A stretch of 64,000 nt of DNA. Source: Sphaerotilus sulfidivorans. Its GTDB lineage: Bacteria; Pseudomonadota; Gammaproteobacteria; Burkholderiales; Burkholderiaceae_C. Position 1 is the stretch's first letter, and each line of letters opens with the position of its first letter. The notes beneath the pieces are model-generated. The model worked only from the letters and a program-made list of their open reading frames with translations. It ran no database searches and was not told where the DNA came from. The position numbers and the translations under genes are program-made. The DNA is taken from assembly GCF_013426975.1 (NCBI RefSeq), contig NZ_JACCPY010000018.1:1-64000 (forward strand), written 5' to 3'. Positions 1 to 29,025 of this stretch are shown here, one piece after another.

Positions 1-499
1 CCTGGATCTGCAGGGCAGCCACCAGCTCCGGGATCGCCGTGATCTCGTTGCTCTTGGCTGCCGTCTTGACCTGACCCAGCACGAGACCGCGCGCGTGGTG
101 CCAGGCCGAGACCAGATGCGTCATGCGTGTGCCCCCGTCATGCGAGCCGCGCAGGCTCTTGCCGTCGATGGCGATCAGCTCGCCCGTCAGCGCGGGGCAC
201 AGGTGCTGCATCCAGCGCGCGAAGAAGCGCTCGAACTGATGCGGGTCGAGCAGGCTGAAGACGCGCCCGAAGGTGTCGTGCGAGGCGATGCCGTTGGCGT
301 ACGGCAGATGCTGGCGCAGCCAGTCGATCTGCAGCTCTGCCCAGTCGGTGACCGAGACCCAGCTGTCGGCGCCACTGCTGACGCTGCACAGCGCCGCGAA
401 CATCAGCTCGTCCAGCGGAAACGGACACGACCGCGAGCGCGGATCGTCCAGTTCGGCCAGCGCCTCGATGAAGTGGGTGGACAGCGGCGCAGTGGTCAT
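1..499 (-). CDS. ISAs1-family transposase, N-terminal part (cut by window edge)
   Basis: Reading the minus strand from an ATG at 499 gives about 166 codons that stay open to the window edge. The N-terminus (MTTAPLSTHFIEALAELDDP) and the block AIDGKSLRGSHD around residue 112 are typical of ISAs1/H-repeat DDE transposases; D112 would be the first catalytic aspartate. HLVSAW, GLVLGQVKT and KSNEITAIPEL follow in the family's usual order. The C-terminal half with the other catalytic residues lies outside the window, so it cannot be judged whether the copy is intact. The frame is open upstream of 499, so a slightly earlier non-ATG start is possible. It borders an AT-rich defence-type insert and may have helped bring it in; that link is inference. 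Confidence 0.85.
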   Translation of the reverse strand, partial: MTTAPLSTHFIEALAELDDPRSRSCPFPLDELMFAALCSVSSGADSWVSVTDWAELQIDWLRQHLPYANGIASHDTFGRVFSLLDPHQFERFFARWMQHLCPALTGELIAIDGKSLRGSHDGGTRMTHLVSAWHHARGLVLGQVKTAAKSNEITAIPELVAALQIQ

Positions 500-686: not shown

Positions 687-769
687 CTCTAGCCAGTTGA
701 CAGCCAGTCGAATTTCACAACAGCACCACAATCGGTCAAATTTTATTTTGAACGGAAAACAAAAAATAT

Positions 770-1297
770 TTATAAAATAATAGACGAGATATGCGAAATG
801 GCATCAGAAACATTTCCAGCCACAGCATCAAGGGAATCAAGAAGATCGTCTGCACAAATTTCCGCAGAGAAACAAAACTCCCTTCTATCCTTTCTAAACG
901 AAACATTTAAACAGCCACTACCAAGCAAATCAGAAATCCTTTGATTTTTCTTACTGAGAGCACTCTCAATATTAACCCAATCCTGCATACCATTACTAAC
1001 CCACCCCATTGATATTCTCACAAATCTTGTCCCCTCAACTCTCGAAAAAATCACATATACGCCGCTAGGGGAATTATAAGATGCAGACGATTTGGCCGAA
1101 TCCCAATGGTAATCATTAATATATTTAACTCGACAAACAAGCTCCTCAAGAACAACATCTACAAGCGGCACAGGCCCACTTGACATCATAGCTATTTTCA
1201 ATGACTCCAATTCACCCTCTATTTGACTCATCATTATTCTACTAGACTGATCATCCAGCGTTGCAGATATTATTAATCTAGAAATTCTTTTTGGCAA
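770..1297 (-). CDS. C-terminal continuation of the SIR2-kinase protein after an in-frame TAG (kinase C-lobe plus unknown domain)
   Basis: This frame is in register with the gene upstream. The TAG at 1304-1306 is followed directly by AGG AGT TTG CCA, and the frame then runs 175 codons to 770. The first 45 residues look like the last helices of a Ser/Thr kinase: LPKRISRLI, an alanine-threonine turn, then DDQSSRI with the arginine that usually pairs with the APE glutamate, then MSQIEGELESL. The preceding frame lacks exactly this part. The remaining 130 residues are not recognised; they contain no membrane segment. If translated separately it would need the TTG at 1297, with AGGAG too close to it, or the ATG codons at 1234 or 1231. 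Separate translation therefore looks less natural than one interrupted 781-codon gene. Composition is AT-rich like the rest of the insert. Confidence 0.7.
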   Translation of the reverse strand: MPKRISRLIISATLDDQSSRIMMSQIEGELESLKIAMMSSGPVPLVDVVLEELVCRVKYINDYHWDSAKSSASYNSPSGVYVIFSRVEGTRFVRISMGWVSNGMQDWVNIESALSKKNQRISDLLGSGCLNVSFRKDRREFCFSAEICADDLLDSLDAVAGNVSDAISHISSIIL

Positions 1298-1303
1298 ACT
1301 CCT

Positions 1304-3115
1304 CTACGAAATATTCTTTCTCGAAGAAACAGCCTTTTTAACAGATTCCATCCATGATGGCGTGGTGTGCTGATCAGGAAAAGGATCCTTCCCACCGCAG
1401 ACATAATAAAGCGTCATCCCAAAACCGTATGAATCAACAGCAGAATTTCTCCTAGAAAACGCAGAACCGCCTCTCTGTTCAGGCGCAAGATAACCAAATG
1501 CAGGACTATGCATTATAGAATGGTCATCAGAATCGCGATAACAAGAAAGATCAAAATCAAGAACCACAACTCTCCATTCATCGATAGATTCAAAACAACC
1601 CTCAATCATTATATTTGCAGGCCGCAAATCCCTATGAAGAACACGCTCAGGCAATAGATGACATTTTCTTAATACGATCGCCAACTGAGAAAAAACCTCA
1701 ATTATTTCATCCCACTCCCGAACAAAATTTGCCGGCACCAACGTTGAAAGGCTCTGCCCATCACACCAGTTCATTATAATTGTTGGAGGTATTTCAGCGG
1801 CATCGATATAATTAATAACACCTTCAATGCCGCGGTCCGTCACTATCCGCAAAGAATTCGCGCCACGCCTAAAACCTTTATAAAAATCAGTCCTGCCAAA
1901 ATTATCGTTTTTTAGAATTTTAACAGCAACAGTGCTACCGTTTTCAGAAATCGCTTTATATACATTTCCAAAAGCACCCTCATCAACCTTGGATATTATT
2001 CTATAACCAATAAACTCATTATCATCAGGATCAGAAGACACATACCAAGAATCATGAATTGCCCGCTGGTATTTTGCTAAAAATGCCGCATATTCTGAAT
2101 TTTTTGCATTCAAGTCTCTATTTTGTAGTATTCTTTTTGCCTCCGAATTCAGATAAATTCTTTTTTCCTCATCAGACAACCTCTGAAGGTCCTTAGGGGA
2201 AATGGGCTCCTTAAATTCACCATTCAAATTTCTTAAGTATACGGGACGCTCCTTCTCGTAATCCTCACTTTTTACAACAGCCTTCAATGAAGAAAGAACA
2301 TGTAGCAGCTCGGCATGAGACCCATTGTTTACAGAGTAATGAACAATATTAACCCCACTCTGCTCCGCCCACTCAGATGCTTCCAAATCACCTCTGGGCG
2401 TAATCCAATAATGGCCGGTTAACGGTATATTTTTTGCAACAATTTTCTCTATAGGGCCGCCTATCGCCACATCACTAGCAGTAACACCAACAAATACAAC
2501 AGTACACACCCTGAATATTATCTTCAACCACTCTATATAACTTGCATCAGTAAGCCTCCTATCCAAATCTTTTTTTGTAAAAGTCCACGAATTCGGCTCA
2601 TCAATATGACCGTGAGGATACGCGACAAACGGACGTTTTTCTTTCAAAACATTAAAATGCTCGGCAAATTTTGTCGCCTGTATTTGTATTGGAATTGCTC
2701 CGCTAGGCATATTGGCACTAGCCCTCTGAGTGAATAAATCAATATTAAGAGTAATAACCCCCGATGGGTCAAGACCCCATATGATCTCATGAGCCCTTGG
2801 TATAGGCATAGTCTCACTAGCGGAGAAAATATCCTTAATCTTTCTTACATAAGAATCACGGCCAAGAAGATCATGCACCCGATCAAACTGAACCCATATG
2901 TCCTGTATTTTGGCAATAGCAGCCAACTCAGCATTTTTTTTCTTCTGAACCGCCCCATCCAATCTACTATTTGCGATCCTCGCTTCAGAAAACAGTTGAT
3001 CCCTTAAAGAAATCCAGCTAGGCATTGCGGGGGAACTCAGACCAGCCCCAGTCCAAAAAACTATTTGCCGAGCCCGATCAGAAAACTCAACCTTTAAATT
3101 ATCAATCGCAGACAT
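1304..3115 (-). CDS. SIR2-like NADase/deacetylase domain fused to a Ser/Thr protein kinase (predicted anti-phage protein, interrupted by TAG)
   Basis: Residues about 15-285 form a SIR2-like domain. It has GAGLS at 23-27, the catalytic-type asparagine in TLNID (N124), the catalytic-type histidine in PHGH (H168) and FVGVTASD near 208-215. Residues from about 370 form a protein kinase: glycine loop EGAFGNVY, VAVK lysine K399, HRDLRPAN with D496 and N501, DFD at 520-522 in place of DFG, and APEQ at 544-547. Translation stops after 603 residues inside the kinase C-lobe; the rest follows in frame after TAG. SIR2 domains in bacterial defence proteins usually deplete NAD+, and kinases act as sensors or effectors, so an abortive-infection role is inferred. 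A Shine-Dalgarno (GGAAAGG) lies 5 bases before the ATG at 3115. The gene is strikingly AT-rich against its surroundings, a sign of transfer. Confidence 0.85.
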   Translation of the reverse strand: MSAIDNLKVEFSDRARQIVFWTGAGLSSPAMPSWISLRDQLFSEARIANSRLDGAVQKKKNAELAAIAKIQDIWVQFDRVHDLLGRDSYVRKIKDIFSASETMPIPRAHEIIWGLDPSGVITLNIDLFTQRASANMPSGAIPIQIQATKFAEHFNVLKEKRPFVAYPHGHIDEPNSWTFTKKDLDRRLTDASYIEWLKIIFRVCTVVFVGVTASDVAIGGPIEKIVAKNIPLTGHYWITPRGDLEASEWAEQSGVNIVHYSVNNGSHAELLHVLSSLKAVVKSEDYEKERPVYLRNLNGEFKEPISPKDLQRLSDEEKRIYLNSEAKRILQNRDLNAKNSEYAAFLAKYQRAIHDSWYVSSDPDDNEFIGYRIISKVDEGAFGNVYKAISENGSTVAVKILKNDNFGRTDFYKGFRRGANSLRIVTDRGIEGVINYIDAAEIPPTIIMNWCDGQSLSTLVPANFVREWDEIIEVFSQLAIVLRKCHLLPERVLHRDLRPANIMIEGCFESIDEWRVVVLDFDLSCYRDSDDHSIMHSPAFGYLAPEQRGGSAFSRRNSAVDSYGFGMTLYYVCGGKDPFPDQHTTPSWMESVKKAVSSRKNIS

Positions 3116-3155
3116 AACGACCTTTCCAGAAAATTAGGCGAACTTACTTCCACTG

Positions 3156-4082
3156 TTAACCGGAAAATTCATTGCAACACAACGAATTACCCGAATATCC
3201 CTGACGCCTGACATTATCCCGACGCCAACCTACTAAGCGACCAAGCCCGTCCACCAGCACGATGCCCTCGACGGATTGCGCGAACTGCAGCGCCTGCGCG
3301 GTGTAGCCCGACGTGGTGATGAAGACGCCTTTCTTGGCGCGCTGGCCCGCCAGGGCGCCGTAGAACGCCTGGATCTCGGGCCGCCCGACCGTGCCCTGCC
3401 AACGCTTGGCCTGCACGTAGACCTTTTCCAGACCGAGCCGGTCCAGCGAGATGATTCCGTCGATGCCCGCGTCGCCCGAGCCGCCGACGCGCTGCAGGTC
3501 GGCGCGGTTGGCCCCATAGCCCATGCGGTGCAGCAGGTCGAGCACCAGCGTCTCGAAGAACGCCGGCGTCACGGTGGCCAGCGTGTCCAGCAGCTCGGCC
3601 ACGACCGCGCGGCGGATTTCCTCCAGCGCCAGGCCCAGCCGCTCTTCCGGGCTGGCGATCGGCTGCGGCGGCACGCCGGCCGCTTCGTCCGGGCCGGCAT
3701 CGGGTGCCACCGGTCGCAGGCGCTGCACGTCCAGGTGCACCATCGCCAGCGTGCCGAGCTGCTCGGGCGTCAGCGGCGCCGGATGCTCGGCCACGAAGCG
3801 TCGGCCGGCCTCGGTCAGTTGCCACCAGCCGCGCCGCGGGCTGTCCGACAGCCCGGCGCGCTTGAGCCGGTCATGCGCCCAGCCGGCGCGGTTCTTGTAG
3901 ATGAGCTGCGCGCCGCTCGACAGCGGCTGCTGGCGCGCCGCGGCGTCCAGCCCGAGCGCGTCGGCCGCTGCCTCGTGGGCCTCGCGGGCGGGCGCGCCCT
4001 CCGGTCGGCCGGCGAGAAAGCGCAGCAGCGGCTCGATGAATCGGTCGTAGGTCGGCAGCGTGGCCGGTGTTGTCGTCGTCAA
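3156..4082 (-). CDS. mrr: Mrr-type restriction endonuclease, C-terminus apparently replaced
   Basis: This is a 308-residue protein with an N-terminal winged-helix Mrr_N region (residues about 10-100) and a C-terminal Mrr catalytic domain. The catalytic signature is visible: GDAGIDG near residue 205, then VYVQAKRW, the D...QxK pattern of the PD-(D/E)xK fold. Mrr enzymes cut DNA carrying foreign methylation (type IV restriction). After the conserved LVDG strand the sequence loses family character and ends in about 30 residues encoded by DNA of changing composition. The normal last helix therefore appears to have been lost at the junction with the AT-rich insert. The start is a TTG at 4082 with GGGAGAG seven bases upstream; the nearby ATG at 4089 is in another frame. 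Activity is uncertain because of the altered end. Confidence 0.85.
   Translation of the reverse strand: MTTTTPATLPTYDRFIEPLLRFLAGRPEGAPAREAHEAAADALGLDAAARQQPLSSGAQLIYKNRAGWAHDRLKRAGLSDSPRRGWWQLTEAGRRFVAEHPAPLTPEQLGTLAMVHLDVQRLRPVAPDAGPDEAAGVPPQPIASPEERLGLALEEIRRAVVAELLDTLATVTPAFFETLVLDLLHRMGYGANRADLQRVGGSGDAGIDGIISLDRLGLEKVYVQAKRWQGTVGRPEIQAFYGALAGQRAKKGVFITTSGYTAQALQFAQSVEGIVLVDGLGRLVGWRRDNVRRQGYSGNSLCCNEFSG
3196..3226. repeat. Imperfect direct repeat at the insert/mrr junction
   Basis: TATCCCTGACGCC (3196-3208) and TATCCCGACGCC (3215-3226) lie where the AT-rich insert gives way to GC-rich mrr. They may mark the insertion boundary. This is an observation only. Confidence 0.4.
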
Positions 4083-5830: not shown

Positions 5831-6574
5831 CCCCTCCAGCTGCACCGCCCGCCCGATGTACAGGATCGGCCCGGTCGGGCGGTCGATCGGCGAGCCGCCC
5901 TCGGGCTCGAGGGTGATCTCGAAGAGCTGTTCGGGGCGCAGGTCGGGCAGGCGCTCGAGCGGCAGCTCGATGGCGCCGCCGGCATCCGTGGTGCGCACCA
6001 GGCCCAGGGAGCTGGGGCCGGCGGCGCCGGGGGCCTTGGTCCAGAACTGCAGCGTGCGGCCCGGCGGCGGCGCCTGGGGCGGCACGACCGGGCGCAGCCG
6101 CAGCCGGCCCTGCCCCGCCGCGTCGACCCGCACCTCGACCACCCAGCCGTTGCCGCCGCCCTGCGGCGCCTGCAGCACCGCGACGAACTGCTGCTGCGCG
6201 GCCGGCGGCGCCATCAGCCGCGGCACCAGCCCCGAGCCCAGCAGCACGCAGCCGGTCAGCGCCAGCCCGCTGAGCGACTGCCACAGGCCCAGGCGCTGCC
6301 ACCAGGGCGGCGTCGCGGCCGGGGCACGCGCGGCGGCAGCCCCCGGCGACAGGCGCGCCTCGATGCGCCGCCACAGCCCGGCGGAGGGCTCGGCCGGCGC
6401 CACCCGGGCGCTCAGCGCCAGGAAGCGGTCCTGCCAGTGCGCGACCTCGGCGCGCAGCGCGGCGTCACCGCCGAGCGCCCGCTCGAAGGCCTCGCGCTCG
6501 TCCGGCGCCAGCGTGCCCAGCACATATTCGCCAGCGGCGGCGCTGCGATCCTCGGGGGTCTGCAGATTCAGCAT
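5828..6574 (-). CDS. Anti-sigma factor (RskA/anti-sigma-K type)
   Basis: This is a 248-residue protein starting at the ATG at 6574, overlapping the sigma gene stop by seven bases, which implies translational coupling. The N-terminal region has the anti-sigma helix pattern AGEYVLGTLAPDEREAFER and a WRRIEARL segment. One membrane helix follows near residues 110-130 (SLSGLALTGCVLLGSGLVP). The C-terminal part is the RskA-type periplasmic domain: FVAVLQ, LQFWTKAP, and FEITLEPEGGSP near the end. Such proteins hold their cognate ECF sigma factor at the membrane until a signal releases it. No zinc HxxxCxxC motif is present, as usual for this branch. Confidence 0.88.
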   Translation of the reverse strand: MLNLQTPEDRSAAAGEYVLGTLAPDEREAFERALGGDAALRAEVAHWQDRFLALSARVAPAEPSAGLWRRIEARLSPGAAAARAPAATPPWWQRLGLWQSLSGLALTGCVLLGSGLVPRLMAPPAAQQQFVAVLQAPQGGGNGWVVEVRVDAAGQGRLRLRPVVPPQAPPPGRTLQFWTKAPGAAGPSSLGLVRTTDAGGAIELPLERLPDLRPEQLFEITLEPEGGSPIDRPTGPILYIGRAVQLEG

Positions 6575-25647: not shown

Positions 25648-26922
25648 ATGACGAACGACTCCCTAAACCCACAAGCAGCGCCTGCCATCACGAGCAAGCG
25701 GGCTCGCGTCACCAGACCGGCGGCCGCTCCTCGCCTGCAAATCGAGCATCTTGGGCCGATCCTGTCGGCCGATGTGACCTTCGGCGACCTGACCGTGATC
25801 GTCGGCCCGCAGGCTACTGGCAAAAGCATCTTTCTACAAACACTCAAGCTGCTGATCGACCGCGATCACATTCACGATACCTTCCGCCATCACAACGTCA
25901 ATGTGGCAGGAAGGGCCGAAGCCTTCTTGGAAGGCTATTTTGGCGGCGGCATGGCCGGGGCCTGGAACGCGGAAACCTCCGCGCTGACCTGGAACGGCAA
26001 GAAGATCAACCTGCCGGACTATGCCTCGCCCGGAAAGGCGCCCAAGAGTCGCATCAAGCACGAACGGCTTTTTTATATTCCTGCGCAGCGCGTCATGAGT
26101 CTGCCAGGCGGCGTGTCTCAGAATTTCGGGCAGTTCAATTACGGCGATCCCTACACCCTTCGCGTTTTTAGCGATGCCGTGCATGACCTGATCCAGAACG
26201 AATTCGGTGCCCAGGGAGAACTGTTCCCCTCCCCGCGGAAGCTCAACAAGAGTCTGCGCACCCCGATCCACCAGCATCTTTTTGGTGGTGGCAAGCTACT
26301 GATCGACGAGTCGAACTTCACGAAGCGTCTGGCGCTGCAGCTGGATGGCCAGTCCAAAGCGCTAGGCTTCTTGTCTTGGTCTGCCGGTCAGCGCGAATTC
26401 ACGCCGCTGCTGATGGGCCTATACTGGCTGTGCCAAGTCCCCAACCCTCAGCGCATGTCAGGCGCAACCCAGGACGAGGTGATCGAATGGGTGGTGCTCG
26501 AAGAGCCGGAAATGGGCCTGCACCCCCAAGGCATCTCCGCCGTGCTGCTGCTGGTTCTGGAATTGATGCGGCGAGGCTATCGGGTCGTCATTTCGACCCA
26601 TTCGCCGGTCGTGCTGGAAATGATCTGGGCTATACAGGAGTTCAAGCAGCTTGGAGCCACGGAAAAAGACATCCGCGACCTGTTCAGCCTGAAGGCAGAG
26701 GACTCCGCCAAGAAACTGGCTCAAGCCGCCCTGTCGAAGGATTACCGTGTCTACTTCTTCGACCGCCAGAGCCCAGTCCGGGACATCTCGGCGCTGGACC
26801 CGGGAGCGCTGGAACAGGCCGAATCCGAATGGGGCGGCATCACCGGCTTCTCATCGCGAGTGAACGCCACCATCGCAGCCGCCGTGAACCGCGCAGCAGT
26901 CCGCACCGGAACCTCGATCTGA
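25648..26922 (+). CDS. AAA/ABC-type ATPase of a predicted defence module
   Basis: This is a 424-residue protein. Walker A is VGPQATGKS (52-60), a signature-like motif SWSAGQRE (243-250), Walker B VLEEPEMGLHP from 283, and an H-loop STHSP (316-320). The layout is that of RecF/SMC-like ATPases such as AAA_15/AAA_21 in OLD, PARIS and Septu systems. There is no Toprim domain at the C-terminus; the last 100 residues are unrecognised. It overlaps the start of the next gene by TGATG, so the two should be made together. It lies three bases past wbpD and splits the wbp gene set. A sensor ATPase for phage defence is inferred, not shown. Confidence 0.8.
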   Translation: MTNDSLNPQAAPAITSKRARVTRPAAAPRLQIEHLGPILSADVTFGDLTVIVGPQATGKSIFLQTLKLLIDRDHIHDTFRHHNVNVAGRAEAFLEGYFGGGMAGAWNAETSALTWNGKKINLPDYASPGKAPKSRIKHERLFYIPAQRVMSLPGGVSQNFGQFNYGDPYTLRVFSDAVHDLIQNEFGAQGELFPSPRKLNKSLRTPIHQHLFGGGKLLIDESNFTKRLALQLDGQSKALGFLSWSAGQREFTPLLMGLYWLCQVPNPQRMSGATQDEVIEWVVLEEPEMGLHPQGISAVLLLVLELMRRGYRVVISTHSPVVLEMIWAIQEFKQLGATEKDIRDLFSLKAEDSAKKLAQAALSKDYRVYFFDRQSPVRDISALDPGALEQAESEWGGITGFSSRVNATIAAAVNRAAVRTGTSI

Positions 26923-27431
26923 TGGCCACCCGTCGCCAAGCCAACGCTCGATCCGAGCAAGCCCCGTCCGACTTCGAGCACGCCTGCCGCCATGCGGAAC
27001 TGGAGCCGCAACACGGGCTGAGCGCCGTCAAGGGCGAATACCGTCCGGGCGTGGCGCTGAAGCCAGGTCATCGCCACACGGCCAGCATCGATCTGGATGC
27101 CTGCCTTCTGGCCAGCGAGCCCACGGCAGCTCGGTGGGACTACGGCATCGGCGTGCGCGGTGAGTCGGGCCAGGAAAGTCTGGTCTGGCTGGAAGCCCAC
27201 CCGGCATCCAGCACAGGAGAAGTGCAGAAGATGCTCGACAAGCTGGCCTGGCTGAAAGACAAGCTGAACCAGCCCGCCTTCGAGCCTTTGCGCCGTCTCG
27301 AACACGAGGTCTCGGCCTACCGCTGGCTGGCCATGACCGGGGCCATCCGCATCCTGCCCCACAGCGCGGAAGCCCGGCGACTCGCCAAGGCCGGCCTGTC
27401 GTCTCCTCAGCGACGAGTCGAGCTGCCCTGA
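26922..27431 (+). CDS. Small partner protein of the ATPase, possible nuclease
   Basis: This is a 169-residue protein. Its ATG at 26922 overlaps the ATPase stop. It is not a family recognised with certainty. Conserved-looking features are SIDLDACLL (55-63), RWDYGIGV (71-78, D73), VWLEAHPAS (88-96, E91 and H93), and KLAWLKDKL (107-115). D...ExH spaced by about 18 residues, followed by a helix, resembles the core of some PD-(D/E)xK nucleases, with histidine in place of lysine. That is a weak inference. The tight coupling to an ATPase suggests a sensor-effector pair. No membrane segment or signal peptide. Confidence 0.7.
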   Translation: MATRRQANARSEQAPSDFEHACRHAELEPQHGLSAVKGEYRPGVALKPGHRHTASIDLDACLLASEPTAARWDYGIGVRGESGQESLVWLEAHPASSTGEVQKMLDKLAWLKDKLNQPAFEPLRRLEHEVSAYRWLAMTGAIRILPHSAEARRLAKAGLSSPQRRVELP

Positions 27432-27435
27432 CGCC

Positions 27436-27708
27436 ATGCCCCTTGCCACCGTGTTCCGCCCATGGCGCCGGCTCCTGATCCTGGCCGCCGCCCTGGCGCT
27501 GGCCTTCTGGACCCAGGCCCAGCTCGCGCTGGCCGGGCAGCGCTGGCACCGCGAGCGGCTTCACCAGTTCGTCGGCAGCCCCTTTCCCTCGGCAGACGAG
27601 CTGCAGGCGATGGACTGGGGCACGCCGCTGCTGCTGGCGCTGCTGCCCTGGGTCGTGGCGCTGCTCGGGCTCGGGGTGCGCCGCTGGCGGCGCCGGCGAG
27701 CCGCCTGA
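27436..27708 (+). CDS. Small two-helix membrane protein
   Basis: This is a 90-residue protein with two predicted membrane segments: LLILAAALALAFWTQAQLAL (residues 12-31) and LLLALLPWVVALLGLGV (65-81). Basic clusters at both ends (RPWRR, RRWRRRRAA) put both termini on the cytoplasmic side. It starts five bases after the previous stop. Family unknown. It stands between two ATPase modules and could belong to either, or be an older resident of the locus. Confidence 0.6.
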   Translation: MPLATVFRPWRRLLILAAALALAFWTQAQLALAGQRWHRERLHQFVGSPFPSADELQAMDWGTPLLLALLPWVVALLGLGVRRWRRRRAA

Positions 27709-27798
27709 GCCAGTCGGATCGGGGCGCTCTGCAACAATCGTCGGGCGCCTGCTGCACGCGCCTTTTTCCTCCGCCTTCCTCCGCTCATCCACTGCGCC

Positions 27799-29025
27799 AT
27801 GTACATCGACACGATCCGGCTGGAGAACATCCGCGGCTTCCGGGAGCTGGAGTTCAGCTTCGACCGCGGCCAGGGACAGTACGCCGGCTGGACGGTGCTG
27901 ACCGGGGACAACGGGTCGGGCAAGAGCACGGTGCTGCGGGCGATGGCGCTGGTCCTCGCAGAAAATATCCGGGCTGCACTACAACCCAGTTTTCGCGGCT
28001 GGGTTCGCTCAGGAGCGGGCAACGGCAAAATTGAGCTACACGCCATCGCAAATGGCAGCACAGATCATCGGGCACACATCGAGATCGTCGAGCACCCTGC
28101 AAGAGTGGGCGGTGTTCTCATGCCAGACGCCATGGGTGTATTCGACTCGCACCCAATAGATGGGTTTTCCTGCGGGTACGGGCCATTTCGCAGAATCTCC
28201 CGGGCAGCACCGGACATTTCCGACCTGATGACCGCTCCGGTCGTCGAACGGTTTGTCACCTTGTTCCAGGAAACGGCATCGCTCGTAGAAGTTGATCGCT
28301 GGCTCCGCAACCTGAACTACAAGCGTCTGGAACAGAAGCCCGAGGCCGCAGCCACGCTCGCCGTCGTTCTCGAACTGCTCAACGACGATTTCCTGCCCAA
28401 TCAGATCACCGTCGATCGGGTCGATTCCGACGGGCTGTGGCTGAAGGACCGCGATGGAAATGCGCTGTCCTGGGCCGACATGAGCGACGGCTACCGCGCT
28501 GCGCTGGCCCTGCTCGCCGACATCCTGCGTCACATGGTCAACGCCTGCGGCACGGACGACCTGACCGGACGGGATGACGAGGGGCGGCTGTTCCTGAAAC
28601 CGGCCGGCGTCGTGCTGATCGACGAGATCGACGCCCATCTGCATCCCGAGTGGCAGCGGGAGATCGGTTTCTGGCTGAAGCGCCATTTCCCGAACATCCA
28701 GTTCATCGTCACCAGCCACAGCCCGCTGATCTGCCAGGCGGCCGATCCGAACGGCCTGTTCGTGCTGCCCGAGCCCGGCAGCGACGAGCCGGCCCGGGCG
28801 CTGACGGCGGAGGAATATCAGGAGGTGATCTCGTCGCGGCCGGACACGATCCTGCGCTCCGCAGCATTCGGCTTGCAGAACACCCGCTCGCCCGTGGCCG
28901 TCGAAGCCCGGTCGGCCTTTGCGGACCTGCGCACCAAGCAGCGCGCAGGCGGCAAGTTGACCCAGGCTGAACTGGTGGAGCTGGAACGACTGCGCCAGTA
29001 CATCAACCCGGACGAAGAGCCCTGA
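27799..29025 (+). CDS. Septu-like ATPase (PtuA-type)
   Basis: This is a 408-residue protein. It starts MYIDTIRLENIRGFRELEF, as AAA_21/RecF-like ATPases do. Walker A is GDNGSGKS (36-43), the signature MSDGYRAALALLAD at 228-241, Walker B VVLIDEIDAHLHPEW at 271-285, and SHSP at 306-309. It is followed three bases later by an HNH nuclease gene of the type found with PtuA, so this is best read as a Septu-like pair. PtuA binds nucleotide and forms a complex with PtuB that cuts nucleic acid during infection. This member is shorter than many PtuA proteins. The middle of the gene (27960-28200) is less GC-rich than its flanks. Confidence 0.85.
   Translation: MYIDTIRLENIRGFRELEFSFDRGQGQYAGWTVLTGDNGSGKSTVLRAMALVLAENIRAALQPSFRGWVRSGAGNGKIELHAIANGSTDHRAHIEIVEHPARVGGVLMPDAMGVFDSHPIDGFSCGYGPFRRISRAAPDISDLMTAPVVERFVTLFQETASLVEVDRWLRNLNYKRLEQKPEAAATLAVVLELLNDDFLPNQITVDRVDSDGLWLKDRDGNALSWADMSDGYRAALALLADILRHMVNACGTDDLTGRDDEGRLFLKPAGVVLIDEIDAHLHPEWQREIGFWLKRHFPNIQFIVTSHSPLICQAADPNGLFVLPEPGSDEPARALTAEEYQEVISSRPDTILRSAAFGLQNTRSPVAVEARSAFADLRTKQRAGGKLTQAELVELERLRQYINPDEEP

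What the first reader, a model, noticed from the sequence alone, without database searches (positions are those of the whole stretch)
770..3115. SIR2-kinase fusion split by one in-frame amber codon
The frames 1304-3115 and 770-1297 are in the same register. Only TAG and two codons lie between them, and the second frame supplies the missing kinase C-lobe (LPKRISRLI, DDQSSRI, MSQIEGELESL) plus an unknown 130-residue domain. TAG differs by one base from TGG, and tryptophan fits this position in the kinase helix. The whole gene would be a 781-codon SIR2-kinase-unknown protein, an uncommon architecture for a defence protein. Either it was recently inactivated, or a suppressor tRNA or read-through makes two products: a 603-residue SIR2-plus-truncated kinase and the full protein.
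Basis: partly seen in the sequence, partly recalled or inferred. Interest (0 to 1): 0.85.

Follow-up and report, generated by a model that had tools for sequence, protein, structure and literature searches.

The report
Broken SIR2-kinase defence-like gene
A bacterial gene joining an NAD-destroying domain, a protein kinase and a chaperone-like domain is cut by one stop codon in this genome, while unbroken copies of the same rare fusion occur in many kinds of bacteria; the stop is probably a recent fault, and the protein looks like an undescribed candidate anti-virus protein.

Summary
Observation confirmed. Minus strand 3115-1307 (SIR2 plus most of a kinase), TAG (1306-1304) and 1303-773 are one frame of 781 codons; a profile built from 23 other members aligns across the stop (804 bits, one TAG). 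I found 33 distinct homologs; 26 are open over the whole length. Read-through is not supported: of 60 tRNA genes found, none reads UAG, and other members' lesions mostly lie elsewhere. Best reading: a recent nonsense mutation, or a base-calling error, in an acquired AT-rich gene; no decay shows after the stop (11 of 11 conserved positions kept). The unknown end domain is predicted to have the type III secretion chaperone fold. The gene sits in a 40% GC block that replaced the end of mrr; a sister species has a different 42% GC restriction-like gene there. The stop is ordinary. The three-part family, not found named in Pfam, PADLOC, NCBIfam or the papers searched, is the interesting part: probably an NAD-depleting defence protein gated by its own kinase.

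The parts
2264..3115 (-). SIR2 domain, codons 1-284
   Evidence: Pfam SIR2_2 in residues 120-256; Asn124 and His168, the presumed NADase residues, present here and in 25 of 26 and 26 of 26 full-length homologs
2006..2263 (-). linker between SIR2 and kinase, codons 285-370, mostly helical in the model of L025
1307..2005 (-). protein kinase, N-lobe and most of C-lobe, codons 371-603; Lys399, Asp496, Asn501, Asp520 present
   Evidence: Pfam Pkinase residues 371-594; each of these residues in 26 of 26 full-length homologs
1304..1306 (-). in-frame TAG, codon 604
   Evidence: Trp at this position in 29 of 32 homologs with a residue there
1181..1303 (-). end of the kinase C-lobe after the stop, codons 605-645, with Arg626
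   Evidence: Arg626 in 26 of 26 full-length homologs; two C-lobe helices in the L025 model
773..1168 (-). C-terminal domain, codons 650-781, predicted type III secretion chaperone-like fold
   Evidence: models of the equivalent L025 region; Foldseek
770..772 (-). TAA, end of the full frame
700..3246 (.). AT-rich block (40.4% GC against 71.2% for 3247-64000)
3156..4082 (-). mrr restriction endonuclease gene whose last part (3156-3246) is replaced by sequence of the AT-rich block
   Evidence: Mrr_N and Mrr_cat; relatives' matches end at 3246-3247 or at 3274; tails compared
2..499 (-). start of a DDE transposase with a DDE_Tnp_1_assoc domain (ISAs1-like by recall), cut by the contig end
   Evidence: the window begins at base 1 of contig C55

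Best explanation
The window holds one disabled copy of a stand-alone, horizontally moved gene for a 781-residue protein: an N-terminal SIR2 domain of the NADase-type defence class, a protein kinase with its catalytic residues, and a C-terminal domain with the fold of type III secretion chaperones. Shown: the frame, the family, conservation of both active sites, the Trp at the stop position, and the sudden change of base composition inside mrr. Inferred: the TAG is a recent nonsense mutation (or a base-calling error), so the host makes at most a 603-residue SIR2 plus a kinase that lacks the last C-lobe helices and an invariant Arg and probably does not fold or signal. Inferred for intact members: an invader's protein or peptide is bound by the chaperone-like domain, the kinase is switched on (perhaps by phosphorylating itself in a dimer), and this releases the SIR2 domain to destroy NAD+ and stop the infected cell.
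For: One frame and one profile alignment across the stop. 33 distinct homologs, 26 open over the whole length. Trp in 29 of 32. SIR2 and kinase active-site residues in 25-26 of 26 full-length homologs and in the window. SIR2 profile matches KomC (8.1e-15), ThsA (1.3e-12) and DSR2-type chains (3.5e-10) of the PDB; PADLOC ThsA models match up to 19 of 23 and an LmuA model 23 of 23 SIR2 segments. Kinase resembles PADLOC PD-T4-6 and mad6 models. C-terminal fold: the first 13 Foldseek rows are type III secretion chaperones. No UAG-reading tRNA among 60. No neighbour shared by more than 3 of 29 loci. AT-rich block in mrr, and a GmrSD_N gene in the same slot of sister genome G010. One viral contig carries an intact member beside a tail protein gene (L056).
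Against: No activity was measured. The window's SIR2 segment alone finds no PDB chain at E 0.1. The C-terminal profile finds no chaperone by sequence and no Pfam family beyond one weak match in 1 of 20; its fold search rests on a single-sequence model (pLDDT 76.6) with TM about 0.5-0.6. The sequence after the stop shows no relaxed constraint (11 of 11 conserved positions, post/pre identity ratio rank 23 of 27), which fits a very recent stop or an error, but also continued translation. Defence genes beside the homologs are not strongly enriched: none of the 25 PADLOC models shown matches more than 2 of 140 neighbours. A full-length fold match to DSR2 is weak (TM 0.24-0.31).
Confidence: 0.72

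Rival explanations
1. The TAG is an assembly or base-calling error and the gene is intact in the living strain.
For: It is the only lesion in 781 codons, every conserved position after it is kept, and only one assembly is held.
Against: The genome is rated 99.95% complete with 0.06% contamination; a substitution error in a unique, non-homopolymer stretch is uncommon (general knowledge).
Confidence: 0.15
2. Two products by design: TAG is read through at low level, or the second part restarts, so that a SIR2 plus partial kinase and a full protein coexist.
For: No relaxed constraint after the stop; a purine-rich AGGAG lies just after TAG; in L050 the first frame also ends close to this point, by a frameshift.
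Against: No UAG-reading tRNA among 60. 26 of 33 homologs have no break, and the in-frame stops of L026 and L048 are elsewhere. The first start after AGGAG is a TTG one base away, and no ATG or GTG follows within the usual distance.
Confidence: 0.06
3. A split enzyme: the two pieces are made separately and assemble into a working kinase.
For: The second frame stays open to its natural end.
Against: No good start site for the second piece (reading of the sequence); no homolog with two genes arranged like this among 33, L050 being a frameshift.
Confidence: 0.03
4. The family is not a defence system but a housekeeping or stress regulator that uses NAD+ and phosphorylation.
For: Few neighbours are known defence genes; no phage assay exists.
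Against: Patchy spread (the full-length profile finds 2 of 349 genomes of the phylum, window included), AT-rich foreign block, exchange with another restriction-like gene in one sister genome, SIR2 of the ThsA, DSR2 and KomC class.
Confidence: 0.2

Closest known systems
DSR1/DSR2 (defence-associated sirtuins)
   Same: SIR2_2-type domain with Asn and His, presumed NAD+ loss; SIR2 profile matches DSR2-type chains, Dsr1 model in 12 of 23 segments
   Different: DSR proteins are about 1000 residues or more; here a kinase and a chaperone-like domain follow; full-length fold match weak
Thoeris ThsA and Kongming KomC
   Same: closest solved SIR2 NADase domains by profile (8.1e-15 KomC, 1.3e-12 ThsA)
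   Different: those act with partner proteins that make a signal molecule (recalled); here no partner gene recurs and the putative switch is a fused kinase
PD-T4-6 and MAD6 defence kinases
   Same: kinase domain matches PADLOC models at up to 4e-31
   Different: matches cover only the kinase; those models have no SIR2 domain matched here
Type III secretion class I chaperones (fold only)
   Same: helix, four strands, helix, two strands, helix in both models; first 13 Foldseek rows, TM 0.52-0.61
   Different: 10-15% identity, no sequence-profile match; part of a cytosolic fusion, not a secretion gene

Membership tests
SIR2 NADase defence effectors (ThsA, DSR, KomC class) | SIR2_2-like domain | tested here: met
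   Pfam E 8.5e-15 above cut-off; profile hits to KomC, ThsA and DSR2 chains
SIR2 NADase defence effectors (ThsA, DSR, KomC class) | catalytic Asn and His | tested here: met
   N124 and H168 present in the window; 25 and 26 of 26 full-length homologs; roles by recall, supported by the H171A (DSR2) and H146N (KomC) names
SIR2 NADase defence effectors (ThsA, DSR, KomC class) | NAD+ hydrolysis and phage protection | not testable with these tools
   needs bench work
DSR1/DSR2 | large helical sensor region after SIR2, about 1000 residues in all | tested here: not met
   781 codons with kinase and C-terminal domain; Dsr1 NCBIfam score 17.8 against cut-off 1400 for L019
PD-T4-6 (single-kinase defence) | protein kinase domain with catalytic residues | tested here: met
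PD-T4-6 (single-kinase defence) | protein made up of kinase plus that family's own C-terminal part | tested here: not met
   only about 215-230 kinase residues match models of 292-510 positions in the window piece; a SIR2 domain precedes
MADS (mad6) | mad6 kinase in a multi-gene MADS operon | tested here: not met
   NCBIfam MAD6 score 52.6 against cut-off 460; flanks are mrr and a transposase
Type III secretion chaperones | fold | tested here: met
   (prediction only)
Type III secretion chaperones | sequence membership of a chaperone family | tested here: not met
   no Pfam chaperone match for 20 members; no PDB chaperone by profile
Amber read-through or recoded genes | tRNA that reads UAG | tested here: not met
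   60 of 60 tRNA genes typed, none with anticodon CUA; the assembly may be incomplete
Amber read-through or recoded genes | stop conserved at the same position in relatives | tested here: not met
   no stop at this position in any of 32 homologs with a residue there
Amber read-through or recoded genes | full-length product in cells | not testable with these tools
   needs proteomics

The most novel reading that the evidence does not exclude
Intact members form an undescribed stand-alone anti-phage system in which a type III secretion chaperone-like domain senses an invader's protein, a fused protein kinase relays the signal, and phosphorylation opens a SIR2 NADase: kinase-gated NAD+ loss inside one polypeptide. 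The family is also often found broken (6 of 32 scorable loci, window included), which would fit a costly gene.
Probability: 0.4. Interest if true: 0.65.

Novelty: new variant of a known kind. Interest (0 to 1): 0.42.

Why it matters
The stop codon itself is a routine broken gene. The protein family matters more: known SIR2 defence proteins are switched on by direct binding of a phage protein, by a nucleotide signal or by a guide complex (recalled; the DSR2 case is in the abstract listed as PMC11087589). A kinase fused between an NADase and a peptide-binding type of fold would be a different way to control NAD+ loss, and intact members from harmless bacteria make it directly testable. The mrr slot also shows how restriction-type genes are exchanged within a genus.

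Tried and rejected
Suppressor tRNA: 60 tRNA genes of the assembly typed, none reads UAG. TAG as a sense codon from stop usage: 6 of 43 mechanical window ORFs end in TAG, too weak because many of those ORFs are on the wrong strand; not used. Restart of the second piece: promoter and terminator scan gave 3 promoter-like sites against 5.9 in shuffles, no support. Close DNA relatives to date the stop: none in plasmids or E. coli genomes; phages searched with the SIR2 part as protein, no match; plasmids give only kinase-type matches for the first piece, 175 records, none covering 80%, and none for the second; a single-sequence scan of viral contigs gave no relative. A conserved operon partner: none. 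Defence-gene enrichment near homologs: only weak. It is placed in Burkholderiales because G105, given as 'same order', is the contig titled Burkholderiales (L009 lies inside L026). Not done: a control for how often comparable genes are broken, so the 6 of 32 is not claimed to be unusual; two further homologs (L028, L052) are partial and were not scored. Dropped before counts: duplicates L019 (= L032), L057 (= L031) and L009 (inside L026). For the structure alignment 23 of the 26 full-length homologs were used (L013 and L032/L019 left out because the genome search fetched the copies at hand, and L046 because its start is unusual); for the C-terminal profile 19 of those 23 plus the window; for the SIR2 profile 22 of those 23 plus the window.

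Full report
What is there. On the minus strand a 603-codon frame (3115-1307) ends at TAG (1306-1304); two codons later a 175-codon ORF begins at a TTG and runs to TAA at 772-770. Both lie in one register, 781 codons with X at the stop. Pfam sees SIR2_2 and the first 212 of 263 positions of Pkinase in the first part and nothing above a cut-off in the second. The genome has one copy.

Relatives. A search of 399 genomes of the order with the SIR2 part gave four matches including the window; one, G105, is a full relative, itself with one in-frame TAA. Class (7 of 369, window included) and phylum (8 of 398, window included) searches added the family members G470 and G964; the other matches are other SIR2 proteins or weak (not all were inspected). 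With a four-row alignment, the scan of genome contigs gave 31 loci and that of viral contigs two. After removal of duplicates there are 33 distinct homologs, in Proteobacteria, Actinobacteria, Acidobacteria, Chloroflexi, Planctomycetes, Bacteroidetes, Ignavibacteria, Myxococcota and others by record title. 26 are open over the whole length, 781-797 codons with the start chosen nearest the homologous N-terminus. Two of these, L044 and L046, have a degraded or missing SIR2 glycine motif, and L051 and L054 keep few of the conserved C-terminal positions.

The stop. The column of the TAG holds Trp in 29 homologs, Leu in two, Ile in one and no residue in one (L050). Among the 26 full-length members it is Trp in 23. 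A profile of 23 intact members, without the window, aligns through the stop with 804 bits. In the L025 model the equivalent residue, 614, is in a loop before a C-lobe helix. The 603-residue product lacks the following C-lobe helices and Arg626, which is present in 26 of 26; in kinases this Arg pairs with the Glu of the APE motif (general knowledge), so the short product is unlikely to be a working kinase (inference).

Why not read-through. Sixty tRNA genes were found and typed; none has a UAG-reading anticodon. Lesions elsewhere in the family differ: L026 has TAA at codon 191 in SIR2; L048 has TAG in the kinase and lacks the N-terminal motif; L050 has a frame change close to the window's stop position; L053 has a frame change; L055 has a deletion with frame change. 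So 6 of 32 scorable loci, window included, are broken. Most are metagenome assemblies, so some may be errors; no control was run. The L050 break near the same point is the one item that speaks for a shared two-product scheme; I judge it chance.

Age of the stop. I compared conservation before and after the stop in 27 sequences. The window keeps 11 of 11 positions conserved after the stop, and its post/pre identity ratio ranks 23rd from the bottom of 27: no decay. Before the stop it keeps 84 of 95, fewer than most (81-95). A very recent stop, an error, or continued translation would all give this.

Setting. The block 700-3246 is 40.4% GC in 71.2% GC surroundings. It begins inside mrr: the window's Mrr loses its last part and ends in unrelated residues, while G004, G005, G008 and G009 keep the normal tail. 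Of these, G008 has an internal gap in mrr, and G001 has three TGA in it. In G010 mrr is cut 28 bases earlier and a 42.4% GC gene with a GmrSD_N domain follows. So the 3' end of mrr took different AT-rich cargo in two of six relatives-plus-window comparisons where this could be seen (window and G010). The other side of the window's block meets a DDE transposase at the contig end, so the right border is unknown. Among 29 homolog loci no neighbour family occurs in more than three: the gene stands alone. Known defence genes occur nearby but sparsely. L056, on a viral contig, lies beside a tail protein gene and a regulator; L057 is the Limnoglobus chromosome copy.

Function of the parts. SIR2: profile hits to KomC, ThsA, human FAM118B and DSR2-type chains; Asn124 and His168 conserved. 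The window segment alone found no PDB chain. Kinase: Lys, HRD Asp, Asn and DFD Asp in 26 of 26; Foldseek finds PknA, PknB and PknI kinases. C-terminal domain: helix, four strands, helix, two strands, helix in the full model (pLDDT 87.8 overall) and in a single-sequence model (76.6); the first 13 fold hits are type III secretion chaperones such as ExsC, CesT and SicP, three of them at E below 0.001. Sequence profiles do not confirm this. Such chaperones are dimers that wrap extended peptides (recalled), which suggests a sensing and dimerising role.

Mechanism, committed. Binding of an invader's protein by the chaperone-like domain, kinase activation, SIR2 release, NAD+ loss, arrest of the infected cell. 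Shown: the parts and their conserved active sites. Inferred: everything about order and trigger. In this genome the chain is cut.

Known or new. NCBIfam and PADLOC give only domain-level matches far below family cut-offs where cut-offs exist. Ten paper searches of an open-access library listed no SIR2-kinase protein; I saw listings with abstract starts, and passages of PMC7159879, PMC8195603 and PMC9503650, none of which describes this fusion. Subscription papers and preprints were not covered.

Noticed in passing
window 25648-29025 (+): Two AAA-type genes: 25648-26922 matches PADLOC PDC-M56A (2.2e-134) and 27799-29025 matches PtuA (6.3e-142); a likely second defence locus in the window.
   Followed up: partly
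L104 8722-10473 (G010): A 42% GC gene with a GmrSD_N domain sits right behind a shortened mrr, in the slot that holds the SIR2-kinase gene in the window: a candidate exchange site for restriction-like genes in this genus.
   Followed up: partly
L108 (G001) and L109 (G008): mrr is itself broken in two sister genomes: three TGA codons in G001, an internal gap in G008.
   Followed up: no
L110 6076-12258 (Rhizobium plasmid NZ_CP125653.1): A 1243-residue SIR2 family protein lies beside a convergent Ser/Thr kinase gene: SIR2 and kinase as neighbours rather than fused.
   Followed up: no
L014 382-2301 (G650): A different SIR2 fusion: a metallophosphoesterase-like N-terminal part (by eye, no search) followed by a SIR2-like domain.
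   Followed up: no
L050 about 6200-6300: Frame change in a homolog close to the position of the window's stop, near a run of six A; probably an indel, but worth a look in reads.
   Followed up: partly
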